Virus record (IMG/VR): IMGVR_UViG_3300009104_000016 | Span: 1 to 64,000 of that record | Length of the DNA stretch: 64,000 nt | Direction: 5' to 3' (one strand) | Source of the DNA: a virus | Part shown: positions 7,614 to 36,909 of the stretch, in pieces | Layout of the letters: the number at the start of each line of letters is the position of its first letter | How positions within the stretch are numbered: the first letter of the stretch is position 1 | The notes under the pieces: model-generated | The model's input: only the letters and a program-made list of their open reading frames with translations | Database searches by the model: none | Told to the model about the DNA's origin: nothing | Made by a program: the position numbers and the translations under genes

Positions 7614-9580
7614 GATGGTTTCGCGTACCAGCTTTTACGGGCATCCAAGCCGCAGCCGATGACGCCGATCGGGGTACTCTTCGTATTTGCGAAGGCTGTC
7701 TTCCTCTAGGGCCGGGGGGACTGCGCTCGGCGCCTGTTTGGGATGCGGTGGGAACCGCCGATAATTTGTCGAGTTCGTCTTGGAATTATCTTTCCGGGTC
7801 TGATGACGGCAAAGGAAACTCTGTAGTATGGGCAAGCCGTTTCGGCGAAGTTCATGATGTAAAGGTATTCTCTTCGGCAAATACGGACCTCGTCCTTTTG
7901 CCGGCAGGTTACGGCGTATCCGTAGGATCTCTGTACCAGCAAGACAAGGCTTGCATGTCTGCGATAGGTAACCGAATGGTAGCCTTCGGAGATGGATCCG
8001 CTGAAGCTCTTTCGGCTGGTAAGGGACCTCCCACCGCTATTGTACAGATAGCTCCCGATAATAAGATATACCACCAAGAGTACTCTCGCTTTCCCAATTG
8101 TAAGTTTTATATACAAGGGCCCCGCAAGACCTTGTTCGCCTCAGGTAACAAGAACAACCCCCTGAAAGTATATATTTCGGAACCTGCCGGGCTGACGCAG
8201 CCGCACAGGGACTCGCTTTACTCATCCGAGGCCACGGGCAGCGTTGATCTTTTGATGACGGATGCTTCCGAAATAACGGCTCTCTCCTCTCTCGGCAATA
8301 ACGTAGCCGTTCATACCGACGCAGGTATCTTTCTACTATCCCCATCCAACCCTGACCAAGCAAGTTCCGGTTACAGGGTAGAGCAAGCACCTACTTCCGT
8401 AGCCTCGGCGGCCGTTAACTTGCAGGTGGTAGCCGGGGAAGACGGAACCCAACCGTACTATCTCGGTTTCGACGGACAGATCTGGAAGGATCCGGCTGGG
8501 CCCGGAAGTGAACAGAAGCATACTTACGCAGACCCCGTACAAGCTTCGGCGAAAGCCAAAGGACGCTGGGATGTAGATCATCCTATTGACCTTTCGGATT
8601 CGTTCTCCGCTTACGAGCCGGAGACGGGAATGTACTGGGTGTATATGAAAACCAAGGAATGGGAGGAATACCAAAGTACCCTCCCACCCAGCGTACCTGG
8701 GTCTATCTCTGCCGTAGCAGCTCCGGGAGCGCCCTCCACGATAAGCGCAGCCCTCCCTCCACAGGCCCCTTCGGGGATATCCGCACTGTCTTCTCCCGGA
8801 AAACCTTGGCTGGTATCCGCCTTGGCGGAACCGGGGGCACCTTCTTCAATTTCTGCTACGGTCGTTGGGGGTACGATCGTGGCGCCGGGGGCGCCTTCAG
8901 GTATTAGTGCTCTTGCACAACCTGGGGCGCCTTCCGGCATTAGTGCTCTTGCACAACCCGGAGCACCTTCAAGCATCAGTGCCGTGCTTGCGACACAAGC
9001 GCCGGGAGCTCCTTCTAATATCTCTGCCTTGGCGGAACCGGGAGCTCCCTCGGCTATCTCTGCCCTGGCGGAACCGGGAGCACCTTCGAATATTTCGGCA
9101 GTACACCAAGTACAGGTACCGGGAGCACCTTCTAGTATCTCTGCCTTGGCGGAACCGGGAGCTCCCTCGGCTATCTCCGCCACATTCCAGTGCGACGCCG
9201 CCAACCCATGCGACGTAACGGCATCCAACCCAGCTACGGTAAATGTGAACCTTACATGGTTGACAGTATCCGCTACAGGCACGCTCATCTGGCAGGGCAA
9301 CAACCCATTCGGAGCCACTTGGGGGCACGGAGGCTGGGAGGGCACTCTAAACATAAATACCGGAGGAACCCATTCCTGCATATTGGAACCCGTGCCGCAA
9401 GTGGGGCAACAAACGTTACTGAAAATCTCTTTCGCTACTGGCGGCGGCGGCGTAGCTTGGAAGACTCTGGTCAAGGACTGGTCCGGCGTTCCCAATAACT
9501 GCGCTGCCCTCCGCTGCAAACCCTACGGAACTTACACTTTAACTGAATTTAATATCAACTACGTCGCAATAGTGTCTTAA
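7610..9580 (+). CDS. Tail protein with PGAPSxISA repeat array
   Basis: This is a 656-residue protein. Residues 1 to about 355 look like the N-terminal part of a tail-stabilisation/tubular beta-propeller protein. They open with MRWFRVPAFTGIQ and a RICEGCLPLGPGGLRSAP segment, followed by strands ending in blade-like motifs such as AGIFLLS and DGQIWKD. Residues about 362-525 contain about 13 copies of a 12- to 18-residue motif, PGAPSxISA plus a short spacer. The C-terminal 130 residues form a separate beta-rich domain with several Trp and Gly residues. The gene overlaps its upstream neighbour by 4 bases. The repeat motif resembles the first strand of FN3 domains without the rest of the fold. Confidence 0.65.
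   Translation: MRWFRVPAFTGIQAAADDADRGTLRICEGCLPLGPGGLRSAPVWDAVGTADNLSSSSWNYLSGSDDGKGNSVVWASRFGEVHDVKVFSSANTDLVLLPAGYGVSVGSLYQQDKACMSAIGNRMVAFGDGSAEALSAGKGPPTAIVQIAPDNKIYHQEYSRFPNCKFYIQGPRKTLFASGNKNNPLKVYISEPAGLTQPHRDSLYSSEATGSVDLLMTDASEITALSSLGNNVAVHTDAGIFLLSPSNPDQASSGYRVEQAPTSVASAAVNLQVVAGEDGTQPYYLGFDGQIWKDPAGPGSEQKHTYADPVQASAKAKGRWDVDHPIDLSDSFSAYEPETGMYWVYMKTKEWEEYQSTLPPSVPGSISAVAAPGAPSTISAALPPQAPSGISALSSPGKPWLVSALAEPGAPSSISATVVGGTIVAPGAPSGISALAQPGAPSGISALAQPGAPSSISAVLATQAPGAPSNISALAEPGAPSAISALAEPGAPSNISAVHQVQVPGAPSSISALAEPGAPSAISATFQCDAANPCDVTASNPATVNVNLTWLTVSATGTLIWQGNNPFGATWGHGGWEGTLNINTGGTHSCILEPVPQVGQQTLLKISFATGGGGVAWKTLVKDWSGVPNNCAALRCKPYGTYTLTEFNINYVAIVS
8692..9183 (+). repeat. In-frame PGAPSxISA micro-repeat array (about 13 units)
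   Basis: Units of 36-54 bases encode P-G-A-P-S-x-I-S-A followed by LAE, LAQ or a longer spacer. Some units are nearly identical at the DNA level, for example the three that read CTTGGCGGAACCGGGAGC and its variants. This indicates recent duplication or gene conversion. The array is intragenic and shows no CRISPR-like spacer structure. A matching array sits at 11009-11340 in the next large gene. Confidence 0.85.
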
Positions 9581-9931: not shown

Positions 9932-12028
9932 ATGCCACCAGGCGCTCCCTCGGGGATCAGTGCATGCGTTAGCCAGCCGATCACTGTTACAAACGCCCCG
10001 GAAGGCTCGCTTAACGGGACTTATCAATTTGACGCTGTTACCGATGCTTGGGTTAACCAAAACAACGTACAGTGGTCTATCCAAAAAGTATGGTGGGACG
10101 CCAACGCCTTGGGCACGGGCAACGCTGCCGGCAATTACTGGACGGTAGTATTTGATCCGGATGCGGGGGTAGCTCCTCCTCCCGGGGCTATACCCATAGG
10201 TAAACTGTGGTACCCCACTTTAATCGATGACCCCTTTCCGGGCAGCACCGCTCAAAACAATGGGTGGTCCTTCATCAACGACAAGCACGCGAATCGGTGG
10301 CCTTTTTACCCCAACCATAAGGTTTTAGTGGAAAGGTTCGACGCTTCCAACCCCCCTCAATTCATAGATTCAGTTGAAATCGCTGGAGATATAGAAAACG
10401 ACGGGGAATGGGCGGACACTGTTCTAGGTTCGCCACCCTCCATGGCGGAAATCTTTCGGGCGGCTATGTGGGAATTCGGGTCACCTAAATGCTACTCGTT
10501 GACCGCAACGATTCCCCAATTTAACCCGCACGGCAGCGTTTTCCTGCCCAGTTATCAAACGTCCGCAGCCGTAGGTAGTATTAATCCAGTGGGTTCATCC
10601 AACGTAATGCTCGGAGGCTGGAACAGTTCGAATGCAGGCGCATGCACAGCCCAAAGCTTAAACGATCTTTGGGGCAATTCCGCCAACTCCTACGATAACG
10701 GGGGCGTCAAGATGGACTACACCCGTACGTGGAATGACGGGACAACCTATAATTTCAAGCTCACCCTACAAGAGCCTTTCAATCTACACACGAATCGTCC
10801 GTTCAACTACCTAATGTTCGGCGATACGAACGACGTGGTCGTAATGAACAAGGTGGCCACGGCATTCCCGTACCCCGGCGGTAAGTGGAGTGCTCCTTTT
10901 ATGTACATAGCCTCCGCTTTGGAAGCTTCCGTGGCGTGGGACTTCTCCATCGGACCTCTCGCCAACAGTCCCTGCCCTCCCTCAGAGGGGTGGTTCGGGG
11001 TGGGGAATATTCCGGGGGTTCCTTCTAATATTTCCGCCGTCACCACTCCGGGAGTACCCTCCAACATTTCCGCCGTCACCACTCCGGGAGTACCCTCAAA
11101 TATCTCTGCTTCCCTCGACGTAGGGGGCGTACCCGGGGTACCCTCCAACATTTCCGCAAGCGTTCTGCAAATACCGGGAGCTCCCTCAAGCGTTTCCGCT
11201 TCTTTAGCAGTTACAGTACCTGAAGCGCCTTCCAGTATTTCGGCAAACCTCGTCACAATCCCGGGGAACCCCTCCAGTATTTCCGCAAGCTTAGTGGCAG
11301 GCGCAGTACCGGGAAACCCCTCTTCCATTTCCGCAACGGTTGTAGAGAGGTCGTACACGGGGCGAACGCGTCCCCCAAAATACATGGGTTTTGCGTACAG
11401 CGAAATGAATCAAGAGCTAGCGGGACCGTTCTCTCATGAAAACCTCACTGCGCTGACCTCCATACAGAACCAGAGCAACCTGCTTTGCGTAACGGAAGAG
11501 CAAGAAATCAAAAAAACCGACCTTAGGAACTACCGAGATCGCGACTTCCCCGTACCTCCATCCCTTTGGGGAGACCTCCTTACACAACCGTCAGGAGATG
11601 ATTTCGTGGTGGGCAACCCAGACGGGGCTTTCATGTACCGGGGGAGACACATATCTTCGCCTTTCGCAGATCCCGTTATGGGCGTAAACACCATAACAAA
11701 TCCTTACTTCTTCACTGATGCTTACTTAGCCGTAACCGAAACAGCGTGGATGCACTTAGGTAACGAGCACAATAATAAGCAGATACACAGGATAGACTAT
11801 AACTTCTCAAAGAATTCCTTCGGCCACCTCTGGGCCTACGTTCAATCAGATTCCGAAAAAGGAAAGATCAGCGGGCAGTACAAGGGGTTGATCAAGGAAA
11901 ACATGAGAGTGTTCACTAATATTCGCGGGAGAAGATTCCGGGTAAAAACCTTCATTGTTTCGCATAAGGATCATCCGTGGAATCTTCGAGAGATGGCGGT
12001 AGGTCATCTGGTAGGTAAGTCGTTTTAG
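9932..12028 (+). CDS. Tail/fibre protein with PGVPSNISA repeats
   Basis: This 698-residue protein starts with one repeat unit (MPPGAPSGISA) and a roughly 340-residue beta-rich domain with many Trp and Asn residues. Eight more P-G-[VAN]-P-S-[SN]-[IV]-S-A units follow at about residues 360-470. A C-terminal domain (about 475-698) ends in FIVSHKDHPWNLREMAVGHLVGKSF-type sequence. That C-terminal part has the feel of the closing section of a tail-stabilisation protein, while the opening section may be in the gene at 7610. The two genes could therefore be halves of one ancestral protein. The 3' end overlaps the minus-strand HTH gene by 77 bases, tail to tail. Confidence 0.6.
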   Translation: MPPGAPSGISACVSQPITVTNAPEGSLNGTYQFDAVTDAWVNQNNVQWSIQKVWWDANALGTGNAAGNYWTVVFDPDAGVAPPPGAIPIGKLWYPTLIDDPFPGSTAQNNGWSFINDKHANRWPFYPNHKVLVERFDASNPPQFIDSVEIAGDIENDGEWADTVLGSPPSMAEIFRAAMWEFGSPKCYSLTATIPQFNPHGSVFLPSYQTSAAVGSINPVGSSNVMLGGWNSSNAGACTAQSLNDLWGNSANSYDNGGVKMDYTRTWNDGTTYNFKLTLQEPFNLHTNRPFNYLMFGDTNDVVVMNKVATAFPYPGGKWSAPFMYIASALEASVAWDFSIGPLANSPCPPSEGWFGVGNIPGVPSNISAVTTPGVPSNISAVTTPGVPSNISASLDVGGVPGVPSNISASVLQIPGAPSSVSASLAVTVPEAPSSISANLVTIPGNPSSISASLVAGAVPGNPSSISATVVERSYTGRTRPPKYMGFAYSEMNQELAGPFSHENLTALTSIQNQSNLLCVTEEQEIKKTDLRNYRDRDFPVPPSLWGDLLTQPSGDDFVVGNPDGAFMYRGRHISSPFADPVMGVNTITNPYFFTDAYLAVTETAWMHLGNEHNNKQIHRIDYNFSKNSFGHLWAYVQSDSEKGKISGQYKGLIKENMRVFTNIRGRRFRVKTFIVSHKDHPWNLREMAVGHLVGKSF
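11009..11340 (+). repeat. In-frame PGxPSxISA micro-repeat array (8 units)
   Basis: Eight units encode P-G-[V/A/N]-P-S-[S/N]-[I/V]-S-A with spacers of 3-7 residues. One unit has PEAPSS. The first units are nearly identical in DNA (the block containing TTTCCGCCGTCACCACTCC is tandemly repeated). The array is homologous to the one at 8692-9183 but biased to Val instead of Ala at position 3. Confidence 0.85.
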
Positions 12029-13076: not shown

Positions 13077-15164
13077 CTATTCAGAAGTGATTATCCACTT
13101 GTTAGTTCCTTTTTTAGGAGACCTCCTTACCCAAGGGATCCCCTTATCGTGTAAACTCCTCAAACCCCACCCCAGTTTCTTGGGGGTCAAGTCCTTGATG
13201 AGGACTCGGGTTCCTTCCATGCGATCCAACTTAACCAGTAACTCGGAGGCAGTGAGCTCCTCTTCCTCCAGTTCGTGCTTGTCCAACCACTTCTCTCTGA
13301 AGATTTGAAGGATCTCCGCAATGTGTGCGTAGCTGGCATCCGCCAACCATATAGCCTCGATATCCTTGTTCAAGTAACTCTTGACCCCGAAACGGTTCTC
13401 CCGAAGCTCGTCGGGCACGCTGGAATTCGACAGGTATCGAGCGAAGTACGGAAGCTCTTTGCTTATGGTAGCCGTGAACCCCGGGAAGAAGTCCTTGAAT
13501 TTCCTGCACTTGAAAATCATCAGCTTGTCCCTGACGGACATCTCCAAATCCGGGAGAAGCTGCAGAGAAGTGGCGTCTTGGTTGAGCGTCACACTGATGC
13601 GTCCCCGCCACCTCACCCTTCCGGGTTTCTTGAACTTCCCGTTCACGCTGAACTCATCGTTGGCTACGAACTCCTTGATCTTGGAAGTGAAGGCAACTCG
13701 GGCCTGCGCGTTGGCGGTAGGAGCTTCATCATCGACGGTGAGCATCCCGAACTCGAACAAGTAGTCGTTGAAGTCCGTCTTCGAGCAGAGGTACTCGGAA
13801 GCTTTTATATGACCCCCGAAGAGGTTCCCGAGAATCTGCGTATTCCAAAGAGTCTTACCGCAATTGGGAGGCCCCACCAAAAACTGGGCATGCCCTGAGG
13901 AAGGGTTCCCTTCGCTGGCATTCCGGTACGCCCATCCCAGCCACGCCAGTTCATACTCCAGTTGCTCTTCTCCGAACATCTTCTCAGCCCAGTCGGCTAT
14001 GGTAGGGAAGCCCTCACCCCACTCCCCTTCCCCGTCAGCGGGGGCTAGGGTGGCTACGGTGGAAGTGTTGAAGTATCTCTTGTTGGAGAGGTTGACTATG
14101 TTTTCCTTGATGAACACGAACGGAACCGCAGCTTCCACGCGTTTCTCATTGTGTATTTGGAACAACGCTCTCTCAACTTCAGAAAGGTTTTCATTTCGTC
14201 CTCTTCGATTGTCCAGACCCGACCTAGCCCTGAGATCTAGAGTGGCTTCCTCCTTGTTGGCAGCTAGAAAAGTGTCGTTGTCCATCCGCACGAAATACTG
14301 CTTACCATCGAACCAGTATCTCTCGATGGCTGCGCCTATCCTGCCTACCTCGAAATCATTAACGAACCGATGACCGAGAATTTCCGACCATGAAACGAAG
14401 GGTTGAGGGCCTGTGAAGCATTGCATACCTTCGGGCCTGACCACCGCAGCCGTTGGGTTGTCTGCGGAGGGGTCCCAAAATCGGGTACCTCTAGCTCCTT
14501 CTTGGAAAGGCCCAGTCCAAATACCGGGGTACTGTTCTTCTATGCCCTCCCTGATGTGACCCAAGTCTATAGCGGTGCCTGCACTTGCGAAATCCGTGGG
14601 CTTGGATGTTTCGTATTGCCAATAATGCAAGGCGGCAAGCGGTATGCGGTTTTGGCTGACCCTCTTCCAGTTCTGGCCAATGGCAAAATAGCGTTGGTGA
14701 TCGGTGGAGCCTTTGTCTAGGTCTACCCCCAGCTTCGAGCCCTTGATCTCAAGCATAACCCTTTTCATGAACTCCTTGGCGGATTTCTCGCCGTGGTACA
14801 TGACGGGTTTCTCAAACAACCACAGAGCGTGCACACCTCCCGAGTACGATTCCGAAACATAGTTCACGGGGTACTCGCTCTTTTCCAGTGAACGTTCCAC
14901 AACCGAGTCGGGAGTTTGTTCGGCGTCGTAGTCGCACACAATCCCGTGAATGAAATGAGGCGCGTTGTTCGCACCTACCCTCTGATGGGGATCGAGCCCC
15001 TCGTACACACTGAAGAAACAGTATTCCGTATCAGGTCGCGTACTCCATTCCTTGTAGGCCCGAGTGTTCTCGAAGTCAGGAAGATGGAAGGGAGGGAGGT
15101 CCCACAGAACCCTCTTCTCTACCAAGTTAGCCTGTAGATTGGGAATCGTGAAAAGCTCACTCAT
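13077..15164 (-). CDS. Primase-helicase (AEP primase plus SF3/D5-like helicase)
   Basis: This is a 695-residue protein. The start at 15164 is preceded by GGAG about 10 bases upstream; the open frame extends to 15260. The N-terminal domain shows archaeo-eukaryotic primase motifs: GIVCDYDAE (the DxD pair, residues 78 and 80), SGGVHALWLF (the His motif), and DLDKGSTDHQRYFAIG (third motif). The C-terminal half is a D5/SF3-type helicase. It has Walker A GPPNCGKTLW near residue 430, Walker B-like GMLTVDDEAP, a motif C with VTLNQD, and SVRDKLMIFKC after it. It should unwind DNA and prime synthesis at the phage fork. The gene lies just after the polymerase and a 51-residue protein that it overlaps. 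Confidence 0.85.
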   Translation of the reverse strand: MSELFTIPNLQANLVEKRVLWDLPPFHLPDFENTRAYKEWSTRPDTEYCFFSVYEGLDPHQRVGANNAPHFIHGIVCDYDAEQTPDSVVERSLEKSEYPVNYVSESYSGGVHALWLFEKPVMYHGEKSAKEFMKRVMLEIKGSKLGVDLDKGSTDHQRYFAIGQNWKRVSQNRIPLAALHYWQYETSKPTDFASAGTAIDLGHIREGIEEQYPGIWTGPFQEGARGTRFWDPSADNPTAAVVRPEGMQCFTGPQPFVSWSEILGHRFVNDFEVGRIGAAIERYWFDGKQYFVRMDNDTFLAANKEEATLDLRARSGLDNRRGRNENLSEVERALFQIHNEKRVEAAVPFVFIKENIVNLSNKRYFNTSTVATLAPADGEGEWGEGFPTIADWAEKMFGEEQLEYELAWLGWAYRNASEGNPSSGHAQFLVGPPNCGKTLWNTQILGNLFGGHIKASEYLCSKTDFNDYLFEFGMLTVDDEAPTANAQARVAFTSKIKEFVANDEFSVNGKFKKPGRVRWRGRISVTLNQDATSLQLLPDLEMSVRDKLMIFKCRKFKDFFPGFTATISKELPYFARYLSNSSVPDELRENRFGVKSYLNKDIEAIWLADASYAHIAEILQIFREKWLDKHELEEEELTASELLVKLDRMEGTRVLIKDLTPKKLGWGLRSLHDKGIPWVRRSPKKGTNKWIITSE

Positions 15165-15312
15165 CTTCTGGTGTCTCCTCTTCTTCGGATACGCGTTTCC
15201 ACTCAAAAGGGTAGTCGAAATTGTTGTTCTCGGGATCGTCCCAAAGTCTCGCCAGCTCAAGGCACAGCTCTACTTCCATGAAATCTATTCCATCCGCTTC
15301 TATCATCACCAT
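15157..15312 (-). CDS. Acidic 51-residue protein
   Basis: A short frame starts at ATG 15312 (a second ATG at 15306 is possible) and ends at TGA 15157-15159, overlapping the primase-helicase start (ATGAGTGA). The product is very acidic and ends in EEEETPEDE. It contains a helical segment MEVELCLELARLWDD. Its overlap with the downstream gene and its fit in an otherwise empty 190-base gap support it as coding. It may act as a small acidic partner or anti-host protein, but nothing in the sequence shows this. Confidence 0.5.
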   Translation of the reverse strand: MVMIEADGIDFMEVELCLELARLWDDPENNNFDYPFEWKRVSEEEETPEDE

Positions 15313-15353
15313 GTGTATTTAAATGTTGTATAAGGTAACACCGAAGGCAAACA

Positions 15354-17261
15354 CTATTTAGTGTACACCTTTGAAATCTGAGCTTCCGCCCGTAGGGGGA
15401 AGTCAGAAGCCCACGAAGGGGGCGTGCACATCAATCTCGTAATCCGCTCTGCCTCTTCTTCCGCCTCGTCCTCGTTGACGGCTATCACCACCTCGTCGTG
15501 CACATGCATAGCTACCTCGTACCCTGCGGAATCCAGATTCAGGATAGCTTCGAGGAGGAACTCCCGCGCATTGGCCTGAATCTCGTTCTCGAAAAGCAGG
15601 GGCCCGTGCACCGACAGCATCCGTCTCTTGGCCCCCATCTGGGACTTGCAACTTATGCCGTAAGTCTCCGGCCTTATGGAAAAGAACTTCAGGAACCTGC
15701 CCGACATCAGAGGGAAGGTGTACTCCCCGGCCTTGGAAGCCATTGCCTTCTTGAGGTTGCTCCCGTGTTCTTTCTGACGCCCCTGAATCAACGGATTGGA
15801 CTGACGGAAATCCGCCACCTGAATGTAGGCATTGACCCACAATCTTTTCTCCTCGGGACTGATGTTGGGGAAAGCGTTGGCTTTGCCGGGATGGTACTTC
15901 TCGTTGAAGTCCAGAAACCTCAGGGCATCCGCTCGGCTGTACGGACGGTCCAGTACCTCGGCCATCCCGAAGTTCTTGACGGTCTGTAGAAACTTCTCCC
16001 ACCCGGCTCCGTAACCCAATGCGAGCACACGAACTTTGGCGAGCAGGTAGAGCCCCGGATCGTCTTCCTTCAGGTTGCCCCCCGTCCACCCCATAGTGGC
16101 ACGGGCATGAGCTTCATAAATGTTAACCCCCTCATACAGATAATCGAGCGTTCTCTGGTCTTCCAGAAGATAGGCTATGGTATAGGGCTCGATGGAAGTG
16201 AAGTCCGCAATCACCCATGTCTTCCCCTCGGGAGCTTCGATGAGGGAACGGATATCCACTCCGTACATGGCGGAACGTGGTATGTTTTGTATGTTATTGC
16301 CCGCATCCCCGCTGAACCTGCCGGTGTGCCCTCCGAAATACTTCAAGTTAAAGGGGATCGTTCCATCCGAACGCAGCCGAGACTCGAAGGTGCGGAGGCG
16401 TTTCAAGTGGGTGTTCATCCTCTGGTAGTTCTGCATGGAGTACACGAAAGGAAGGGAGTCACCGTGTTCCCTAATCCATTTCTCGAAGTCAGGGTTGCCC
16501 TTGGCTAACGATTTGGGAGGCTCTATACCCCGCTTTCGACACTCCAGAGCCAGTGCCTTCTTTGAGTATATGACATAGGGTTTCTTCGTGTCGGGATCTA
16601 TTTCCTCATGCCAAGGAAGCTCGGCTCTAGCGGCAAACATCTGCCTTTCGAGATCGTCTATGCCCCTAGTAAGACTATCTTCGTTGATAGGCAGACCGCG
16701 CATACCCATAACGCGGTTAATTTCACTGAGCCGAGCTTCCTTGTCAGGCCAATAAGGCCGGCATTTCTTGTAAAGTTCCCAAGTAAGTTTCGAGTCATCG
16801 AGACAGTACTGCAGAAGTTCCTTGGCCTTGTCCTCGGCAATGGCATCATCCCACGTCTTCCCCTTCATCCAATTTCGGATATCCTTGGACACTTCCTTGC
16901 CCAAACAATACTTGGACGCCCCCGCCAAAGTCCTCTGGTAGTGGAAGTAAACCGCCAAATCGGCGGAACACTCCCACCCCTCCACGGTTTCGGCTATCTT
17001 TAAAGGGACTATTCCCTGCTCTACCAAACTCTCAAACACCACTTGATCGAAGCTGGCGTTGTGGGCTACCAAAGTATGCCCCTTGATCTTCTTCCACGGA
17101 GCGTCCTTGGGGTGCCCCACCCACTCCAGCTCATCGTTCACCAGTGAAACCATGTAGGCTTCAAAGTCCGGGTGTCTGCAATAAGCGTGAGCCCCTAGGG
17201 TGACGACCGAACAGGTCTTGTCGTAATACGTCTCAAAGTCGATGACGGTAATCTTATTCAT
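15354..17261 (-). CDS. Family A DNA polymerase with 3'-5' exonuclease
   Basis: This 635-residue replicative polymerase has an N-terminal DEDDy exonuclease: DFETYYD (residues 8-14), VAHNASFD (65-72) and YCLDD (Tyr152, Asp156). The polymerase has motif A with Asp353 (VIADFTSIEP), motif B KVRVLALGYGAG (Lys409) and motif C HDE (588-590). All catalytic residues are present. In motif B the position equal to E. coli Pol I Phe762 is Leu413, and the position equal to Arg754 is Tyr405. The length is close to that of T7-type polymerases. No thioredoxin-binding insertion is obvious. ATG at 17261 overlaps the stop of the preceding 53-residue gene. Confidence 0.92.
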   Translation of the reverse strand: MNKITVIDFETYYDKTCSVVTLGAHAYCRHPDFEAYMVSLVNDELEWVGHPKDAPWKKIKGHTLVAHNASFDQVVFESLVEQGIVPLKIAETVEGWECSADLAVYFHYQRTLAGASKYCLGKEVSKDIRNWMKGKTWDDAIAEDKAKELLQYCLDDSKLTWELYKKCRPYWPDKEARLSEINRVMGMRGLPINEDSLTRGIDDLERQMFAARAELPWHEEIDPDTKKPYVIYSKKALALECRKRGIEPPKSLAKGNPDFEKWIREHGDSLPFVYSMQNYQRMNTHLKRLRTFESRLRSDGTIPFNLKYFGGHTGRFSGDAGNNIQNIPRSAMYGVDIRSLIEAPEGKTWVIADFTSIEPYTIAYLLEDQRTLDYLYEGVNIYEAHARATMGWTGGNLKEDDPGLYLLAKVRVLALGYGAGWEKFLQTVKNFGMAEVLDRPYSRADALRFLDFNEKYHPGKANAFPNISPEEKRLWVNAYIQVADFRQSNPLIQGRQKEHGSNLKKAMASKAGEYTFPLMSGRFLKFFSIRPETYGISCKSQMGAKRRMLSVHGPLLFENEIQANAREFLLEAILNLDSAGYEVAMHVHDEVVIAVNEDEAEEEAERITRLMCTPPSWASDFPLRAEAQISKVYTK

Positions 17262-17419
17262 GCGTTAACTAGCTCTTTTATGTTGGGTCTAGTGTTGGCT
17301 CCTCTTCGGCGCAACCACCTGTAGTAGCCGTTGCGGCTGACCCCTTGGATCTTACAGGCTTTAGTTATGTCCACGTATTTCGCCAGTTGATGCACCCGTT
17401 TGAAATCTTCCGTTTTCAT
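17258..17419 (-). CDS. Small HTH-like protein
   Basis: ATG at 17419 has AAGAAG a few bases upstream and gives 53 residues; the open frame upstream to 17482 includes a GC hairpin and is judged untranslated. The sequence KRVHQLAKYVDITKACKIQGVSRNGYYRWLRRRG reads as a compact helix-turn-helix of the IS3-OrfA/transposase or resolvase type, ending in a basic patch. It is coupled to the polymerase by an ATGA overlap. A small DNA-binding factor is likely, acting as regulator or replication accessory. There are no other transposon parts nearby. Confidence 0.55.
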   Translation of the reverse strand: MKTEDFKRVHQLAKYVDITKACKIQGVSRNGYYRWLRRRGANTRPNIKELVNA

Positions 17420-17431
17420 ACTCTTCTTAAC

Positions 17432-17449
17432 GAGGGGCCGGAGCCCCTC
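17432..17449 (-). promoter_or_regulatory. GC hairpin between coupled minus-strand genes
   Basis: On the minus strand GAGGGGC-TCCG-GCCCCTC forms a perfect 7-bp stem with a four-base loop. It lies 8 bases after the stop of the gene ending at 17458 and 12 bases before the ATG at 17419. No T-run follows, so it looks more like an mRNA processing or stability element, or an attenuator, than a full terminator. Confidence 0.5.
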
Positions 17450-17457
17450 AGGTTGAT

Positions 17458-18189
17458 TCAGGAAGTGAAGTCCGACAGCCACTCTTGGAACTCCGGAGAG
17501 TTGGCTTCACCCTTCTTGACGATGGGCACGAAGGTCGTGTTGCCAGTCTTGAAGGCTCTTTTCTCAGTCGTGAGCTTGAAGCTGCCCGTGGCCAAACCCT
17601 TTCGGTAGTAGGTCGCGGCGGCAGAGATCAAGTCCGTGGCGGCGGAGAAATACGCAGTGTTGCGAAGCTTCCACCTTGCGAAGGCGTAGTTCTTGCCGTC
17701 GTGTTCAAACGGGAAGAACGAGGGATCGTCGCCATCTTGGCTGACTGCGATCAACGCATCCGCCATAGGCTTCCACGTAGGAGCCACCCTCTCACCGTCG
17801 TCGCCCGTAGTCCACCCCAGCGTACCTCCGAGGTCGAGGACTTCGGCCTTGGTGTTCACCAGACGGGGAATCTCATCCACGCCCCAAGGCAGGTTCTCTT
17901 CGTAGAGTTTGGCGAGGCGCACTACCGTAATGTCGGCAGGTTGCTCCAATTTATACTCCCCGTCCAAAACGAGATCGCCCTTGTTGAGGCCCTCGATATC
18001 GGACAGCTTACCCATCCCCGAGACGATCTGAACCAGAGGAAACTTAATGTCCTCGGAGTCGATGTCTCCCGTTATGCCAGCACCCGTAGGTCTAGGTATC
18101 GCGAGCTCCTCTGCGGAAGCCACGATGTCTTTGGAGGTTACGACCTCCGCGTTTTCTTCTATCTCAGCAGTTAATGATGTCTTAGCCAT
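17458..18189 (-). CDS. Unknown replication-operon protein (possible ssDNA-binding role)
   Basis: This 243-residue protein has an acidic, flexible N-terminus of about 50 residues. Its body has regular strands (FPLVQIVSG, ADITVVRLAKLYEE, KNYAFARWKLRNTAYFSAA) and a helix with ISAAATYYRKG. It ends in an acidic/aromatic tail, FQEWLSDFTS. Position between the polymerase and the nuclease and the aromatic/acidic tail are reminiscent of phage ssDNA-binding proteins. No OB-fold signature is clear and I do not recognise the family. Transcription continues into it from the nuclease gene 50 bases upstream. Confidence 0.6.
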   Translation of the reverse strand: MAKTSLTAEIEENAEVVTSKDIVASAEELAIPRPTGAGITGDIDSEDIKFPLVQIVSGMGKLSDIEGLNKGDLVLDGEYKLEQPADITVVRLAKLYEENLPWGVDEIPRLVNTKAEVLDLGGTLGWTTGDDGERVAPTWKPMADALIAVSQDGDDPSFFPFEHDGKNYAFARWKLRNTAYFSAATDLISAAATYYRKGLATGSFKLTTEKRAFKTGNTTFVPIVKKGEANSPEFQEWLSDFTS

Positions 18190-18239
18190 TAGTCTTTTTG
18201 TATTTGGTTGTACTTATGTATGCCGACTGTACGTCAGCT

Positions 18240-19220
18240 CTACGTTAGGTTTCTCTGCTTCCTCAGATAAGGAATCAGAAGTTGATCGTCGTCCTCGGGA
18301 ACCAGATCGTTGCGCAGCAACTCGGCTTCGATCCGTGGACGGGCTTCCTTTTTCTCCCCGACGGGCAGCTTCTGGGCATACGCCTTGGCTATGTCGGTGA
18401 GGGAAGCCTTGCAGATTGACATGAATTCCTCGGGGGTGAAGAAGTCGGAAAGTGCGTTGTACACTTCCTCCATTTCTTCCCCCTTGAACTTAGCGGTGGG
18501 CTTGCGGTGGAGCACGGAGTAACCCGGGATATCCTCGCCCTCTTGATGGGCCATGCGAAGAGCCTCCCTACGAACCTCCTTGCCCCAATTCTCCACCACT
18601 CCACTGACCTCCAGCATCTTGGCGATCATGACGGGGTCATCAATAGCCATAGGGTTGAGGTTATCCCACAACGCCACCTCAAAATTGTCAGTACCTTGGG
18701 CGTACTTCTTGGCGAGGGGCAACAGCTTGGACTGCAGGGCCGGACAAGTGACGCGACTACCGCAATACTTGCAAGCCTCGGTGTTCGTTATAAGCTCGGT
18801 CTTGGCCTTGGCCCGTGTGACTATCAACTCTACCCGCATGATGATGTAGTCCATGTCGGGTTCCCTGTTGAAGGTATGCACGGTAACCTCGTCTCTCCGT
18901 GGCAGGATGAACCTGACCGTGACGGTCTTGGCCCACTGGAACTTCTGGAAGCAGCCTAAGGCGTAAGCTTGACCCTGTATATTGATCTCGGCATCGTCGA
19001 CGGGGTTGTACCCGAACTTGTAGTCGAGCATCTCCACATGTTCCCGTTCGGGGAACTCAGCCACTACGTCGGCCGTTCCGAAGATATTCTTTGAAGAATC
19101 TATTGAAGTTGTCATTGTATTGGAATTCGTAGATGGGGATGAGCTTCCGTTCGGAACCGTCCACGCAGGTTGCGAAAAGAAACTCTCCCTCGCTAACCCC
19201 GTCGACCAGTACGACATCAC
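18240..19220 (-). pseudogene. Cas4/DUF2800-like nuclease, C-terminal fragment of a frame-broken gene
   Basis: The real coding part starts near 19100. It has IFGTADVVAEF (motif II Asp), LDYKFGYNPVDDAEINIQGQAYALG (D-x-K motif III and Q-x-x-x-Y motif IV), LPRRDEV, and the iron-sulphur cysteines ACKYCGSRVTC. This is the second half of a RecB/Cas4-type PD-(D/E)XK nuclease. The first half, with the His motif and the first Cys, lies in another frame at 19217-19525. The open reading frame upstream of about 19110 is Ser/Thr/Pro-rich and looks out of frame. Between the two halves a third frame is open. Either the gene is broken, or it is recoded, or the assembly has indels. It would resect or recombine phage DNA. 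Confidence 0.6.
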
Positions 19221-20009: not shown

Positions 20010-20322
20010 CGTTTCCCTCCTTTACATGTCTAATCGCCATCACGGCGCATATCTCGAACAGATCGTTTATCATGCACTGCAAGTGAGCCATGAACTCCAC
20101 CATGCAGGCCTTGTAGAGAACCTCGGGAGCTACGTCTGAAAACTCGGGAAGTCCCGCCTTCGATTCCATGGAAGCGTTTATTACACTGCTCACTTGTTGA
20201 GCGGCACTGTCGAGACGCTTCCTCATCTCGGGCGGTAACTCCGAAAAACTGGAGAGACCTTTAGCTTTTTTGAAATCGAAGGGGATATCCCCGTTCTTGT
20301 CATCTGCGAATCTGTATCCCAT
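20002..20322 (-). CDS. Unknown 106-residue helical protein
   Basis: This is a helical, mildly acidic protein with segments ELPPEMRKRLDSAAQQVSSVINAS and LYKACMVEFMAHLQCMINDLFEICAVMAIRH. The latter is a long amphipathic helix with several Met and Cys residues. It starts on the last base of the SF2 helicase gene (one-base overlap) and overlaps the next gene by 8 bases. No family is recognised. A helicase partner is possible from the coupling only. Confidence 0.6.
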   Translation of the reverse strand: MGYRFADDKNGDIPFDFKKAKGLSSFSELPPEMRKRLDSAAQQVSSVINASMESKAGLPEFSDVAPEVLYKACMVEFMAHLQCMINDLFEICAVMAIRHVKEGNDD

Positions 20323-21671
20323 TACAATATAGGGTTAAGCTCATCATCGTTGATGAGATCTAGGTTTCGTATCTTCTGCCGAACACGCTGGCATACTCTT
20401 TCCTCCACCGTATCTGCGGCGAATACTATGCGTTGAACGCTTTTGGATTTTGCTCCGGCTCTGTGGACTCTTCCCAACGCCTGCTTCAAATCGATAGCCG
20501 AGAACGTTGGAGAAATTATACTTACACGGGAACGCTTGCCGTCCGTGTCGTGGAGGCTGATGCCCAACCCCCCTGCTGAAATAGTGGACACGCAACAGAG
20601 CCAAGGCGAGGTGCCGAAACAGGCAACCGCCATTTCCCTGTCCTCCTCGGAGTCTCCTCCCTTGATGGTGACGCAACTCGACTTCCCCGATTCCTCCACC
20701 AACTGCACGACCTTGGAGAGCGTCTCCCTGAAGGAAACGAACACGGCTACCGCATGTCCTTCCCCAATGGCGTCCAAGGTTAGATCGGCAAAGAGAGGAG
20801 CCTTGAGAAGCTCTACCCTCTGCCGTGCCCTGAGTTGCTTGGTAAGGGGGTTGTCGGGATCCACGTCGTTGGCGGCTCTCTCGTCGACCTCCTTAAGTTC
20901 CTTGTAGACCTTGTTCACCTCCTCTGGCTCACCTACCGCATAACTCTGGGGTATGATGAGGGTCTCCGGAAAATCGGGAATGTCCTTGGTACGCAGACGC
21001 GAACCCTTCTCTGAATATATCTGGTCGTGGAGCTTCCTCAGGTAAAGCTTCTCCCCCACGAAGTCCAACCCTCCGAACTGCCCCGGAACGCAACCGTTGA
21101 GACGGCACCACCTCCACCAATCGGTACCCCCGTGGAGACGCAGGGCGAAACCCAGAGCCTTCATCTCGGTAGGATCGGTACAGGAGGTGGCCCCGAGAAG
21201 AAGCATGGGGCGACCGTCCTCAGCCGCTGCCATGAGCATGCGAGAGTTCTGCGACGAGGGGCTCTTGCACTTGTGATCCTCGTCGAAGATCAGGAGGATG
21301 CCCCCGTAACGCAACTGCCACTTGTACTTCCGACCCTTCTTCTTTAAGAAGTCGGTGTTCCCCGTCTTGAGCTTCTCGTAGGTGAAGACGAAGGGCTCCT
21401 CCACATTGGGGAAAAACTTGGCGTACCATTCCTTCCACGCAGGAACCACGGACTTGGGGCATATGACGAAGGGAGTCAGGGACAGGCGGCGGGCGGTTTC
21501 CAGAGCGACCACGGTCTTCCCCGTACCCGTATCCGAACCGTCCTTGGCAACACCGTGAGTTTCGATGGAGTGTGCCAGTGAAGCACAATGGTCTTCCTGC
21601 CAAGGGTACAGGGCTGGCGGCAGGGGGTTGCCGGTGCTTTGTCTGATCACCCCCTCTATGGTCACAGGCAT
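20322..21671 (-). CDS. SF2 (SNF2-like) DNA helicase
   Basis: This is a 449-residue superfamily 2 helicase. It has a Q-like entry LYPWQEDH, Walker A SDTGTGKT (46-53), motif Ia FVICPKSVVPAWKEW, and Walker B DEDH (130-133). Motif III is GATSCTDP. Motif IV/V includes AVFVSFRE and STISAGGLGISLHDT, and motif VI is QALGRVHRAG. PKSVVPAWKEW and the order of motifs match SNF2/DEAD-like phage helicases. It should translocate on or unwind DNA in replication or recombination. It is 10 bases inside the end of the sigma-like gene. It has no nuclease domain. Confidence 0.85.
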   Translation of the reverse strand: MPVTIEGVIRQSTGNPLPPALYPWQEDHCASLAHSIETHGVAKDGSDTGTGKTVVALETARRLSLTPFVICPKSVVPAWKEWYAKFFPNVEEPFVFTYEKLKTGNTDFLKKKGRKYKWQLRYGGILLIFDEDHKCKSPSSQNSRMLMAAAEDGRPMLLLGATSCTDPTEMKALGFALRLHGGTDWWRWCRLNGCVPGQFGGLDFVGEKLYLRKLHDQIYSEKGSRLRTKDIPDFPETLIIPQSYAVGEPEEVNKVYKELKEVDERAANDVDPDNPLTKQLRARQRVELLKAPLFADLTLDAIGEGHAVAVFVSFRETLSKVVQLVEESGKSSCVTIKGGDSEEDREMAVACFGTSPWLCCVSTISAGGLGISLHDTDGKRSRVSIISPTFSAIDLKQALGRVHRAGAKSKSVQRIVFAADTVEERVCQRVRQKIRNLDLINDDELNPIL

Positions 21672-21955
21672 ACCCTACCCCTCTCCTCTTCCGCACCCCT
21701 GTCGCGCAGGTTCTGTATCATCGACACGGCGTCTTCCACCGATATGCCGTCGTCCTTGAACACCTTCTTCAACTTGGGGTAGAGACGCATGAGAGCCTTC
21801 TGTTCTATCTGACGCACACGCTCACGCGTGACCCCCATCTGGACGGCGATCTCATCGAGGGTGTAGCTTCTTCCGGGTTCGGCATTGTCCGCAAATTTCT
21901 GCAACCTCTGGTCGGCTTCGGTGGGTTTGGCGAAATCAGCCGAAGACGGATTCAC
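21662..21955 (-). CDS. Sigma-70 region 4-like HTH protein
   Basis: The C-terminal half holds RSYTLDEIAVQMGVTRERVRQIEQKALMRL, an almost textbook sigma-70 region 4.2 helix-turn-helix that normally contacts the -35 element. There is no region 2. GTG at 21955 is chosen because the frame upstream, open to 22114, would overlap a convincing zinc ribbon in another frame for about 180 bases. The longer form would add a Lys/Pro/Ala-rich tail of about 50 residues. The 97-residue form overlaps the zinc-ribbon gene by 20 bases. It may redirect host RNA polymerase or act as a repressor. Confidence 0.65.
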   Translation of the reverse strand: MNPSSADFAKPTEADQRLQKFADNAEPGRSYTLDEIAVQMGVTRERVRQIEQKALMRLYPKLKKVFKDDGISVEDAVSMIQNLRDRGAEEERGRVCL

Positions 21956-22130
21956 TGAGCTTGTTCGCGTACTCTGCGATTTTTTGGAGGCCTTGGTCGG
22001 GAATTTCGCGGGTTGTGAAACGCCGCTTACACTTATGGCATCGGCGACGCCTGCGGGTGTGGGCTTGGTTTTTGCCGGTGCGGGTTTCGAGGGTTTTGCT
22101 TTTGTCATGATCACAATAAGGACATCTCAT
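21936..22130 (-). CDS. NrdR-type zinc-ribbon protein
   Basis: This 64-residue protein begins MRCPYCDHDKSKTLETR and continues RRRRRCHKCKRRFTTRE. It has the CxxC...CxxC zinc ribbon and the RRRR-C..C-KRFTT signature of the N-terminal DNA-binding part of the NrdR repressor (Cys3, 6, 31, 34). The ATP-cone that senses nucleotides in bacterial NrdR is absent. It is the first gene after a 190-base gap with a possible promoter and inverted repeat at 22178-22212. A phage transcription regulator, perhaps of ribonucleotide reductase operons or of its own promoter, is likely. Confidence 0.75.
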   Translation of the reverse strand: MRCPYCDHDKSKTLETRTGKNQAHTRRRRRCHKCKRRFTTREIPDQGLQKIAEYANKLSESVFG

Positions 22131-22551: not shown

Positions 22552-22733
22552 CCGGCTTCCCTCTTCACCTTCTCTACCACGATATGCTTCAAGCCTATGC
22601 TGAAGTAGTCCAGCTCGGAAGCTTCCCTCCGGCCTATCTCCACTATCTTCTCGGCGAGATGTTCGGGCATCTCTATGTCCAACGTCTCGGCTCCGCTCTC
22701 CTCCAGCTTGATCTCGTTTTTATCTTCGGTCAT
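22548..22733 (-). CDS. Unknown 61-residue acidic protein
   Basis: ATG at 22733 overlaps the resolvase TGA (ATGA) and is preferred to the open extension to 22772. The sequence is acidic at first (MTEDKNEIKLEESGAETLDIEMPE). It then has a helical region HLAEKIVEIGRREASELDYFSIGLKHIV and a basic end. The last part resembles a ribbon-helix-helix or dimerisation helix pair but is too short to assign. It lies between the resolvase and the MazG-like gene in a fully overlapped set. Confidence 0.55.
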   Translation of the reverse strand: MTEDKNEIKLEESGAETLDIEMPEHLAEKIVEIGRREASELDYFSIGLKHIVVEKVKREAG

Positions 22734-23206
22734 GTCCTCGCGTCTCTTATAGGGTTCTGCGTTCTGTGCCACCAGTCGAGTATCAACAAGGCATCGGCTG
22801 TGGCTAAAGTTATCTTGAGTTCCGGGTACAGGCGGCAGGCGTGGCTCTTCAGTTTTCTCTTCCTCGGGGCTCCCGTGAGACCCCGAAGACCCTCAAGTCC
22901 CGCCTGCCATTTCTGGGGTTTCACCAAGTGAAGTGGGAACTTCATAGCCATGAGCACACCGGATTCAAAGCCGTAGTTGTACCCCAACTTGAAGGCTGAA
23001 CTGGAAGGTATGTTGGCCCCGGTGTAGGGGGGAATGGACTCGATGACCGCATCGGTTTCCGCCGGATCCATGCCGCCTACCACCTCCATAAACTCCGTCT
23101 CGGTGAAATGGGTGAACCCCTTGAGGGTTATGCCACCCTTTCTATACAAAGCCACACCCCCTTTTTGACCGGGGTCTACGGCTATGACGTTTCGTGGAAA
23201 GGGCAT
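22730..23206 (-). CDS. RuvC-like Holliday junction resolvase
   Basis: This is a 158-residue RNase H-fold protein. It has IAVDPGQKGGVAL (Asp11), AVIESIPPYTG (Glu56), KPQKWQAGLEG, and LATADALLILDWW (Asp138). The D-E-D order and the DPGxxG opening match RuvC/pox A22-type junction resolvases of phages, including the usual length of about 160. It should cut four-way junctions and branched replication products before packaging. It is the third gene of the minus-strand operon and overlaps the next by 4 bases. Confidence 0.8.
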   Translation of the reverse strand: MPFPRNVIAVDPGQKGGVALYRKGGITLKGFTHFTETEFMEVVGGMDPAETDAVIESIPPYTGANIPSSSAFKLGYNYGFESGVLMAMKFPLHLVKPQKWQAGLEGLRGLTGAPRKRKLKSHACRLYPELKITLATADALLILDWWHRTQNPIRDART

Positions 23207-23438: not shown

Positions 23439-23630
23439 TTAAGAAGACGGGCGCGCGCGTTCCCTCCGAGCCTTGCGTCTCTTCATTTCCCTCGAGATAG
23501 CCTCTCTGGCAATCTGAGACGGAGTCGAATGAACCCTGCGAGCTTCCTCTTGGAGCTCATCCCTCATACCTCCGGCGAGGCGGATGTTGAGCTGGCACGG
23601 GAAGGAGATTTTAGCGGAGACGCCTTTCAT
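23439..23630 (-). CDS. Ribbon-helix-helix regulator
   Basis: This 63-residue protein has one beta strand, LNIRLAGGM, followed by two helices, MRDELQEEARRVHST and PSQIAREAISREMKRRKARRER. This is the strand-helix-helix layout of Arc/CopG repressors, where the strand pair enters the major groove. It is the first gene of the minus-strand replication operon, next to the divergent repeat region. It is therefore a good candidate to autoregulate the promoter at 23642-23670 or to bind the repeats. The ATG lies only about 5 bases after the predicted transcription start, which would make it nearly leaderless. Confidence 0.65.
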   Translation of the reverse strand: MKGVSAKISFPCQLNIRLAGGMRDELQEEARRVHSTPSQIAREAISREMKRRKARRERARPSS

Positions 23631-23641
23631 AGTAACTAAAC

Positions 23642-23670
23642 GTAATACACGTATCGGGCGTGCTTCTCAA
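23642..23670 (-). promoter_or_regulatory. Candidate promoter for the minus-strand operon
   Basis: On the minus strand TTGAGA (23670-23665) and TATTAC (23647-23642) are separated by exactly 17 bases, five and four matches to the sigma-70 consensus boxes. The predicted start near 23635 is very close to the RHH gene ATG at 23630. It is the best-matching promoter seen before the long minus-strand operon. Confidence 0.4.
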
Positions 23671-23862
23671 GTAAAAAGGGAAACTACAGCAAAACGCTTA
23701 TGATGAACCCAAAGGTCTTCAGGAACTTGAACTCGGGCAGGCGAAGGAACTCCAACGCAGACCGCAGGCATTTCATGGAAAGGGCACTACTCCTAAGCCG
23801 AGCGTACCCAACGAATAGTCTGTTATTCATACCACCCAAATAGACCCAAGAAGAGGCAAAGG

Positions 23863-23902
23863 CAATGGTGCTCAATGGTGCTCAATGGTGCTCAGTGGTA
23901 TT
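23863..23902. repeat. Four 10-bp tandem units CAATGGTGCT
   Basis: Three exact units start at 23863, 23873 and 23883, and a diverged fourth (CAGTGGTATT) at 23893. The unit length is one turn of DNA helix. It lies 28 bases before a second array with the same 10-bp period. Confidence 0.85.
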
Positions 23903-23930
23903 CATGGCGGTAGGGAGTCCAGAATCCCGT

Positions 23931-24050
23931 AGCCCCTTTTGGGACCTTTTGGGGTCTTTCAGGGTTTTTTGGGGTATTCTAGGGTCTTTTGGGACCTTTT
24001 GGGACCTTCTAGGGTTTTGCAGCCCCTTTTAGGGTCTTTTGGGGGTGGGA
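23931..24050. repeat. Twelve-unit array with exact 10-bp period (GGGnCCTTTT-like)
   Basis: Every 10 bases from 23931 to 24050 a unit of the type GGGACCTTTT, AGGGTCTTTT, AGGGTTTTTT or AGCCCCTTTT begins, without any phase slip. GGGACCTTTT occurs twice exactly and AGGGTCTTTT twice. T-tracts repeated once per helical turn are known to bend DNA, and the G-runs could form quadruplex structures. A binding array for a phage origin protein is the likeliest role. Confidence 0.85.
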
Positions 24051-24133
24051 CGCCAAAAACAAGAAACATAACAAGAAGTCATAAGCGGCTGGGCGGCAAG
24101 AAGTTCGGTCCTTTCTTATTGTTTTATTGTTTT

Positions 24134-24149
24134 TTATACATATGTATAA
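24134..24149. repeat. 16-bp perfect palindrome in an A/T-rich block
   Basis: TTATACATATGTATAA reads the same on both strands. It is embedded in a block of about 55 bases that is almost entirely A/T (24113-24170) and ends in TATAATAGG. It could be an operator or part of an unwinding element. A TATAAT box at 24162-24167 lacks a matching -35 at the right distance. Confidence 0.7.
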
Positions 24150-24402
24150 GTAAAAGTAGTATATAATAGGCAGGGGGCAGGGGCCCCACCCCCAGGGCAC
24201 CCCGGGGGCACCAGGGTTAGGAAACGAAAAACAACAAGAAAACACTAAAAATATTTGTAAGTCTTTGGTAGGTATTTGTTTGAGCCACCGTGTTTGCTTT
24301 ATTGTTTCGATTCGAGTCTTGTTTCTGCTGGAGAGTTTTTATTTTTCTGTTTTGTCTTTTAGATTTTGTGTAATTTCAAAACAGGTATTCTTTAATGTTT
24401 TG

Positions 24403-24422
24403 ACGGGCTCAGCTCGTTTTTT
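24403..24422 (+). terminator. Weak terminator-like hairpin
   Basis: ACGGG and CTCGT can pair (with one G-T pair) around CTCAG, followed by six T residues. If active it would stop plus-strand transcripts that begin in the repeat region before they reach the early genes, acting as an attenuator. The stem is short. Confidence 0.3.
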
Positions 24423-24446
24423 GGTGTTTCGGCGGGTTGGCGGCGT

Positions 24447-24483
24447 TCGGCGCGCACCTACCAGCATCGGCGCGCACCTATCA
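24447..24483. repeat. Two 17-bp direct repeats TCGGCGCGCACCTAYCA
   Basis: Copies begin at 24447 and 24467, 20 bases apart (two helical turns), differing at one base. They lie in a G/C-rich block that contrasts sharply with the surrounding A/T-rich DNA. A dimeric protein-binding site upstream of the early genes is likely. Confidence 0.75.
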
Positions 24484-24616
24484 AAGGGCCCCCCGCCGCC
24501 CCCGCCACCCCGCTAGATTGAAAAAAAAGAAAGGGAACAAATAAGGGTAGGGAAAAAGGAGGAACAGAAAAAGATCCCAAAAATTCCTCAATACGCAATG
24601 TCTAAAATCACTCCCT

Positions 24617-24844
24617 ATGGATGACCCAACCGACTTCGTGTATGAGAACAAACGAAACTACTGGCTGTCCGTTGTCAACGGCACTTCTCCCAACTGGCAT
24701 CCCAACCGAGTTCCTGCAGCTCTCGAAATGCTAAAGTTGATAGAAGAAAGTAGTGTCCCCTGCAAAAACTGCGGATCTAAAGAGTGCTACCACGAAAACA
24801 GCTACTGTGCTAGTTGTTTGCGAGCTCTCATGTTCTGGCCGTAA
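24617..24844 (+). CDS. Small zinc-finger-like protein
   Basis: This 75-residue protein is the first of the early plus-strand genes. The N-terminal half is polar, with YENKRNYWLSVVNGTSPNWHPN. The C-terminal half carries CKNCGSKECYHENSYCASC, a dense CxxC-x4-C-x6-CxxC cluster suited to one zinc ion. An 8-codon frame starting at 24598 ends across this gene's ATG and may couple their translation. No strong ribosome binding site is close to the ATG; a GGAGG sits about 50 bases upstream. The function is unknown, though small zinc proteins at this place often modify host functions. Confidence 0.6.
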   Translation: MDDPTDFVYENKRNYWLSVVNGTSPNWHPNRVPAALEMLKLIEESSVPCKNCGSKECYHENSYCASCLRALMFWP

Positions 24845-36583: not shown

Positions 36584-36662
36584 GTTGAAAATGCCTTAAA
36601 ATCCTCTTTTAATCTTCCGTGGGGCTTGGGGAAGCCCGCCATAGCTAATCCCAGAACTCCAT

Positions 36663-36842
36663 AAAGAGGTACGGGGGGAGATGGGATGCGGACTATTCGT
36701 CCGCCAGTCGCCAGACCTTAGTCCTTAAGCTTCAGGCACATAGGTTTCAATCTTGAAATCTGATACCCGAGTATCTCCCTTTTGCGGCTGGCGGTCTGGC
36801 GGCTGGGACTGCGTCCTACCCCATCTCCCCCCGTACCTCTTT
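36663..36842. ncRNA. Multi-branched inverted-repeat element, candidate structured RNA
   Basis: Outer arms 36663-36685 and 36820-36842 are perfectly complementary over 23 bases. Inside, CCAGTCGCCAGACC (36704-36717) pairs with GGTCTGGCGGCTGG (36793-36806) with one G-U. A GCGGAC-TATTC-GTCCGC hairpin (36688-36704) and a GGAC-TGC-GTCC hairpin (36106-type, at 36806-36816) flank that stem. Further hairpins are TTTCAA-TC-TTGAAA (36745-36758) and GATAC-CCGA-GTATC (36762-36775). The region has no open frame of note and lies between the last early terminator and the first late gene. An abundant phage RNA, a packaging RNA or a DNA cruciform used in replication are all possible. Confidence 0.55.
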
Positions 36843-36909
36843 ACTCCATTCTGCGATTAGCTATGACGATAGAAAAATATAAGGGATCCCTTTGTGCCGG
36901 GAAGTTATA

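What the first reader, a model, noticed from the sequence alone, without database searches (positions are those of the whole stretch)
23863..24050. Two repeat arrays with exact 10-bp phasing in the divergent region
Four CAATGGTGCT-type units (23863-23902) and twelve GGGnCCTTTT-type units (23931-24050) run without one slip, so the same face of the helix carries every unit. Phased T-tracts bend DNA, and repeated G-runs may form quadruplexes. The place between replication and early operons makes an origin or origin-protein array likely.
Basis: partly seen in the sequence, partly recalled or inferred. Interest (0 to 1): 0.72.

Follow-up and report, generated by a model that had tools for sequence, protein, structure and literature searches.

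The report
Repeat arrays beside phage control region
Two real 10-base repeat arrays lie between the divergent operons of an uncultured phage, but none of 15 relatives has them; what the relatives share is a neighbouring inverted-repeat element that looks like a replication origin or two-way switch.

Summary
CAATGGTGCT x3.7 (23863-23902) and about 11 clear 10-bp units (YYTTYYRGGR, 23935-24044) run without an indel, far above chance (z = 11.8, the strongest period-10 signal in the 68-kb record). They lie in a ~1-kb noncoding divergent region of an uncultured phage.

Relatives with the same gene order (helicase ~44-52% identical) also have a divergent noncoding region, but none of 15 carries the 10-bp arrays. 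What they share is a ~200-bp core: 7-9-bp A/T-rich words repeated directly and inverted around a G/C-rich plus TATA-rich centre, then a CAACGACTTAYGA box. A profile built only from relatives finds this core in the window at 24064-24271 (E = 7e-12), starting about 15-20 bp from the array. The word differs between lineages but changes on both sides together, as expected for binding sites of one protein.

Best reading: the arrays are lineage-specific tandem duplications flanking a conserved origin-like or operator-like core. The exact 10-bp phasing follows from in-register duplication. GC skew does not switch there, predicted bending is moderate, and a 10.0-bp period drifts about half a turn across the array.

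The parts
23863..23902 (.). Array 1: CAATGGTGCT x3.7, period 10
   Evidence: TRF score 67; direct reading
23931..24050 (.). Array 2: 10-bp units YYTTYYRGGR (11 clear units, 23935-24044, plus one degenerate), with higher-order similarity at 50-60 and 90-100 bp
   Evidence: TRF, repeats, lag analysis z = 11.8
24064..24271 (-). Conserved noncoding core (origin-like or divergent-operator-like), found by a profile of 13 relatives that excluded the window
   Evidence: nhmmer E = 6.7e-12, 39.5 bits; places outside the core region score -0.7 bits or less; Markov-shuffled genomes 3.8 bits at most
24112..24134 (.). Word block next to the array, TTTCTTATTGTTTTATTGTTTTT (reverse complement contains AAAACAATAAAACAATAAG), equivalent to AAAACCATAAAACCATAT of relatives
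   Evidence: (I1, I9)
24135..24171 (.). TATA-rich segment of the core
24172..24219 (.). G/C-rich segment of the core (GGCAGGGGGCAGGGGCCCCACCCCC...), aligned with the G/C-rich stretch of most relatives
24227..24249 (.). Opposite word block, inverted (AAAAACAACAAGAAAACACTAAA)
   Evidence: (I1, I9)
24077..24090 (-). Degenerate counterpart of the CAACGACTTAYGA box of relatives (AGCCGCTTATGA and following)
   Evidence: 3 mismatches, so weak on its own
23439..23630 (-). Small ribbon-helix-helix-like gene (first gene of the leftward operon), a counterpart of which stands before RuvC in relatives
   Evidence: tblastn hits in L017, L041, L042, L044, L068; no Pfam or PHROG hit; the fold assignment is inference from the QLNIR...TPSQ motif
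22730..23206 (-). RuvC-like Holliday junction resolvase
   Evidence: phrog_1770, E = 6e-16
20322..21671 (-). Helicase, used to find the relatives
   Evidence: Pfam Helicase_C/ResIII; phrog_62
13077..19220 (-). DUF5906 primase/helicase-like protein, family A DNA polymerase and DUF2800/exonuclease genes of the same leftward operon
   Evidence: synteny

Best explanation
The region is the divergent control segment of an uncultured phage lineage. Its conserved working part is the ~200-bp core at 24064-24271: repeated 7-9-bp A/T-rich words in direct and inverted orientation around a G/C-rich and a TATA-rich stretch. The most likely mechanism (inference) is that a phage DNA-binding protein loads on the words from both sides and opens or regulates the TATA-rich centre, either to start DNA replication or to switch the two divergent operons. 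The two 10-bp arrays are lineage-specific tandem duplications in the flank next to this core. They arose by repeated in-register copying, first of 10-bp units and then of larger blocks, which by itself gives an unbroken period. They may add modest curvature, but nothing indicates a conserved function for them. Shown: the array, its absence in the relatives found, the core, and the paired change of words. Inferred: the core's role, the duplication history and the lack of function of the arrays.
For: Same gene order and a divergent noncoding region in relatives. 10-bp period scores within 1 kb of the core are 0.35-0.47 in 15 relatives against 0.71 here; the two strong relative arrays have period 7 (GCACCAA x13 in L068; GGCTGAT x4.6 in L008). 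Units 50-60 and 90-100 bp apart are more alike (0.76-0.85) than neighbours (0.68), and 19 of 23 departures from consensus are transitions, both fitting block duplication and ordinary mutation. The relatives-only profile finds the core at 24064-24271 with E = 6.7e-12. Left and right words match their own partner best of all 120 pairings of five lineages. A degenerate array pattern has no match in 2.9 million viral contigs apart from the withheld own record.
Against: No close relative (over 60% identity) was available, so short-term conservation of the array could not be tested. The two genomes with the longest arrays (this one and L068) are also the two that lack the second RHH-like gene found in the other 14 relatives, so an array might replace a lost regulatory site. 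GC skew does not turn at the core, which weakens the origin reading of the core itself.
Confidence: 0.58

Rival explanations
1. The 10-bp arrays are a functional iteron-like binding array: a phage initiator or architectural protein loads on every unit and hands DNA to the adjacent AT-rich core, which melts.
For: Arrays of 3.7 and about 11 units lie ~15-20 bp from the conserved core. Positions 3, 4 and 8 of the unit are invariant in 11 units. Lambda-type origins pair direct repeats with an AT-rich tract (PMC7466680).
Against: The units are absent from 15 relatives that keep the core and do not contain the core word. Two different unit sequences lie side by side. Units are only about 68% identical to their neighbours. 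GC skew does not turn here.
Confidence: 0.2
2. The array acts through DNA shape: T-tracts and GGG/GGGACC elements half a turn apart curve the helix, helping HU/IHF-like proteins or RNA polymerase bring the two sides of the core together.
For: Array windows are among the most curved 120-bp windows of the genome by a wedge model (lowest 0.13% of end-to-end ratio), and AA/TT power at period 10 is the genome maximum. 8 of 11 units have a run of at least 4 T.
Against: End-to-end ratio is 0.82 against 0.37 for a phased A5 control. The period is 10.0 rather than 10.5, and 3 of 11 units have no T-tract. No comparable element in relatives. The model parameters were taken from memory.
Confidence: 0.12
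3. G-runs of the array fold into G-quadruplexes that control replication or transcription.
For: One G3+N1-7 motif on the + strand, 23941-23974, the only such motif on that strand of the 68-kb record.
Against: Loops of 6-7 nt are at the permitted limit and predict weak stability. Three other motifs lie elsewhere on the - strand. No such run in relatives.
Confidence: 0.04
4. Array copy number or sequence is an assembly artefact of the metagenome.
For: The record is a metagenomic contig with no end repeats; reads could not be checked.
Against: The units differ from each other, so they are not a collapsed or stuttered perfect repeat, and the flanks align with relatives.
Confidence: 0.04

Closest known systems
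Lambdoid phage origin (ori-lambda: four O-protein iterons beside an AT-rich tract; PMC7466680)
   Same: Repeated short sites beside an AT-rich stretch, near replication genes. Here this fits the core at 24064-24271 and only loosely the 10-bp arrays.
   Different: Words are 7-9 bp, direct and inverted on both sides of the centre, in a divergent intergenic region rather than inside an initiator gene; no O-like initiator was recognised, and there is no GC-skew turn.
Operators and centromeres of ribbon-helix-helix proteins (omega of pSM19035, ParG of TP228; PMC5016525)
   Same: Direct and inverted short repeats, partly around AT-rich DNA, beside genes for small RHH-like proteins. The 7-8-bp word spacing of the core resembles this.
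   Different: No ParA partner was looked for or seen. Binding is untested. The 10-bp array does not have the 7-8-bp spacing. RHH strand residues (QLNIR, TCAVRL) look constant by eye while words change.
Minisatellite-type tandem arrays from slippage or unequal recombination
   Same: Exact unit period, block-wise higher-order similarity, mostly transitions, lineage-specific, noncoding.
   Different: Copy-number variation among close isolates could not be tested.

Membership tests
Iteron-type replication origin | Tandem repeats conserved in position in related replicons | tested here: not met
   10-bp arrays absent in 15 syntenic relatives; the adjacent core is conserved
Iteron-type replication origin | AT-rich unwinding tract next to the repeats | tested here: met
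   TATA-rich stretch 24135-24171 between word blocks of the core, aligned with relatives
Iteron-type replication origin | Strand-composition switch at the origin | tested here: not met
   Cumulative GC-skew minimum lies 9-14 kb from the core in the window, G002, G003 and G005; confounded by gene strand and module composition
Iteron-type replication origin | Binding of a cognate initiator and start of DNA synthesis there | not testable with these tools
   needs footprinting or read-depth data from infected cells
Phased A-tract bent DNA | A/T runs of at least 4 at ~10.5-bp spacing with strong curvature | tested here: inconclusive
   8 of 11 units have T4 or longer, period 10.0; end-to-end ratio 0.82 against control 0.37, though in the lowest 0.13% of the genome
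G-quadruplex element | G3+N1-7 motif with a stable fold | tested here: inconclusive
   one motif at 23941-23974 with loops of 6-7 nt; no biophysical test
Minisatellite (tandem duplication) array | In-register copies with higher-order block similarity | tested here: met
   identity 0.76-0.85 at unit distances 5-6 and 9-10 versus 0.68 for neighbours
Minisatellite (tandem duplication) array | Copy number or presence varies between lineages | tested here: met
   absent in 15 relatives; unrelated 7-bp arrays in L008 and L068
Ribbon-helix-helix operator | 7-8-bp direct or inverted repeats bound by an RHH dimer | tested here: inconclusive
   core words have 7-9-bp spacing and RHH-like genes flank the core in relatives; binding not testable here

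The most novel reading that the evidence does not exclude
The adjacent core defines a so far undescribed family of phage origins or divergent switches in which the repeated binding word is swapped as a set between lineages (ATGGTTTT, ATTGTTT, TGTAGTTT, TTTTACGT) while the architecture is kept. The 10-bp arrays would be a lineage-specific extra loading platform that replaces the second RHH-like regulator missing from this genome.
Probability: 0.15. Interest if true: 0.6.

Novelty: new member of a known kind. Interest (0 to 1): 0.3.

Why it matters
The conserved core is a compact candidate for the replication origin or master switch of an uncultured phage lineage that has no close relative among the named phages searched. 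Its lineage-by-lineage change of binding word would allow tests of how an initiator or regulator and its sites change together. The 10-bp arrays themselves appear to matter little beyond showing that noncoding DNA beside this core accumulates tandem duplications.

Tried and rejected
Coding by the array: four overlapping short ORFs have no PHROG hit, and a 10-bp period is not a multiple of three, so coding was rejected. Structured RNA across the array: z = -0.46 and -0.79 on the two strands; no Rfam match in the window. Sigma-70 promoters: none found in 23550-24700, uninformative for other promoter types. DNA similarity in phages and plasmids: only chance matches of about 30-40 bp. One unrelated 46-kb phage contig has a short, exactly 10-bp-spaced TTTTGGGCCC array (L024) and lacks the helicase, taken as independent origin of a similar simple array. 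Searches with two rightward-operon proteins gave no relatives. Literature searches found no paper on this lineage or on 10-bp arrays at phage origins; the library is open-access only. Co-variation of RHH strand residues with the words was looked at by eye and not seen.

Full report
Setting. The window is bases 1-64000 of a 68,336-bp virus record of IMG/VR with no end repeats. It is a tailed phage: major head protein, terminase and portal matches, a leftward operon with a DUF5906 primase/helicase-like protein, family A DNA polymerase, DUF2800/exonuclease, helicase, a sigma-70 region 4 protein and a RuvC-like resolvase, and a rightward operon from 24617. Between the last leftward start (23630) and the first rightward start lies about 1 kb without convincing genes. 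Among named phages the polymerase finds only matches at about 20-24% identity and the primase none.

Observation. Both arrays are real and at the stated coordinates. Lag 10/20/30 self-identity of the second array is 0.66, against 0.31 +/- 0.03 in shuffles, and it is the top period-10 site of the record. The unit is degenerate: two of the units are exactly GGGnCCTTTT, the best description is YYTTYYRGGR, and the last unit is hardly recognisable. Similarity is higher at unit distances 5-6 and 9-10 than between neighbours, and 19 of 23 departures are transitions. That pattern fits block-wise tandem duplication, which produces an unbroken period with no need for selection on helical phase. At 10.5 bp per turn a 10.0-bp period drifts about 170 degrees over 100 bp, so a common helical face is only approximate.

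Relatives. Helicase searches gave relatives with the same leftward gene order. In all that reach far enough, a divergent noncoding region is present. The 10-bp arrays are in none of 15. Two have other arrays: GGCTGAT x4.6 in L008, on the same side of the core as here, and GCACCAA x13 in L068, beyond the HNH gene on the other side.

The conserved core. The relatives share ATATGGTTT-type words in direct copies, a G/C-rich then TATA-rich centre, the same words inverted (AAAACCATAAAACCATAT), about 20-40 bp, then CAACGACTTAYGA and another word. A profile from 13 relatives without the window finds window 24271-24064 with E = 6.7e-12. The second-best hit (E = 9.5e-06) is the same place on the other strand, as its inverted symmetry predicts; the best score in ten Markov-shuffled genomes is 3.8 bits. 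The word differs between lineages, yet in each genome the left words match the right words of that same genome: of 120 possible pairings of five lineages the true one scores best. The word blocks for that test were picked by eye from the alignment, so the result is suggestive. The arrays lie just outside this core, ending at about 24044-24050.

Neighbouring genes. An HNH gene stands beside the core in all 15 relatives and a second RHH-like gene in 14; neither is found in the window's record. The one relative without the second RHH-like gene, L068, also carries the longest array of the set. With two cases this is a lead only.

Function tests. GC skew does not turn at the core in the window or in three relatives; the cumulative minimum lies 9-14 kb away on the rightward side. 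This speaks against a simple bidirectional origin at the core but is confounded by gene orientation and module composition. A wedge model, with parameters recalled from memory, puts the array among the most curved windows of the genome but well below a phased A-tract control. One weak quadruplex motif is present. RNA folding of the array is unremarkable on both strands.

Conclusion. The part with evidence of function is the neighbouring core. The arrays are best explained as lineage-specific tandem duplications. Known comparisons are the lambda origin, with repeats beside an AT-rich tract (PMC7466680), iteron plasmid origins (PMC10797057), and direct or inverted repeat sites of RHH proteins (PMC5016525). 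Membership of the core in any of these is not established.

Noticed in passing
window 36640-36860: Noncoding stretch at the junction of the early-like and late modules with an exceptionally strong long hairpin (RNA MFE -118.6 kcal/mol, z = -11.2), no Rfam match, about 1.5 kb from the cumulative GC-skew minimum. G005 and G002/G003 share conserved sequence near their corresponding junction, but homology with the window hairpin was not found.
   Followed up: partly
window 44285-58855: A single 4856-aa open reading frame, about a fifth of the record.
   Followed up: no
window 8888-9181 and 11011-11097: 36-bp tandem repeats inside two open reading frames, coding a 12-residue repeat of the type PGAPSSISALAE.
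   Followed up: no
window 21662-22114 (-): Small protein with a sigma-70 region 4 match (Pfam E = 7e-11) in the replication operon, also present in relatives.
   Followed up: no
L068 6669-6911: A relative has a 49-bp x2.7 array followed by a 7-bp GCACCAA x13 array beyond the HNH gene on the rightward side of its core.
   Followed up: partly
L024 1-1033: An unrelated 46-kb viral contig has a short TTTTGGGCCC array of exactly 10-bp period.
   Followed up: partly
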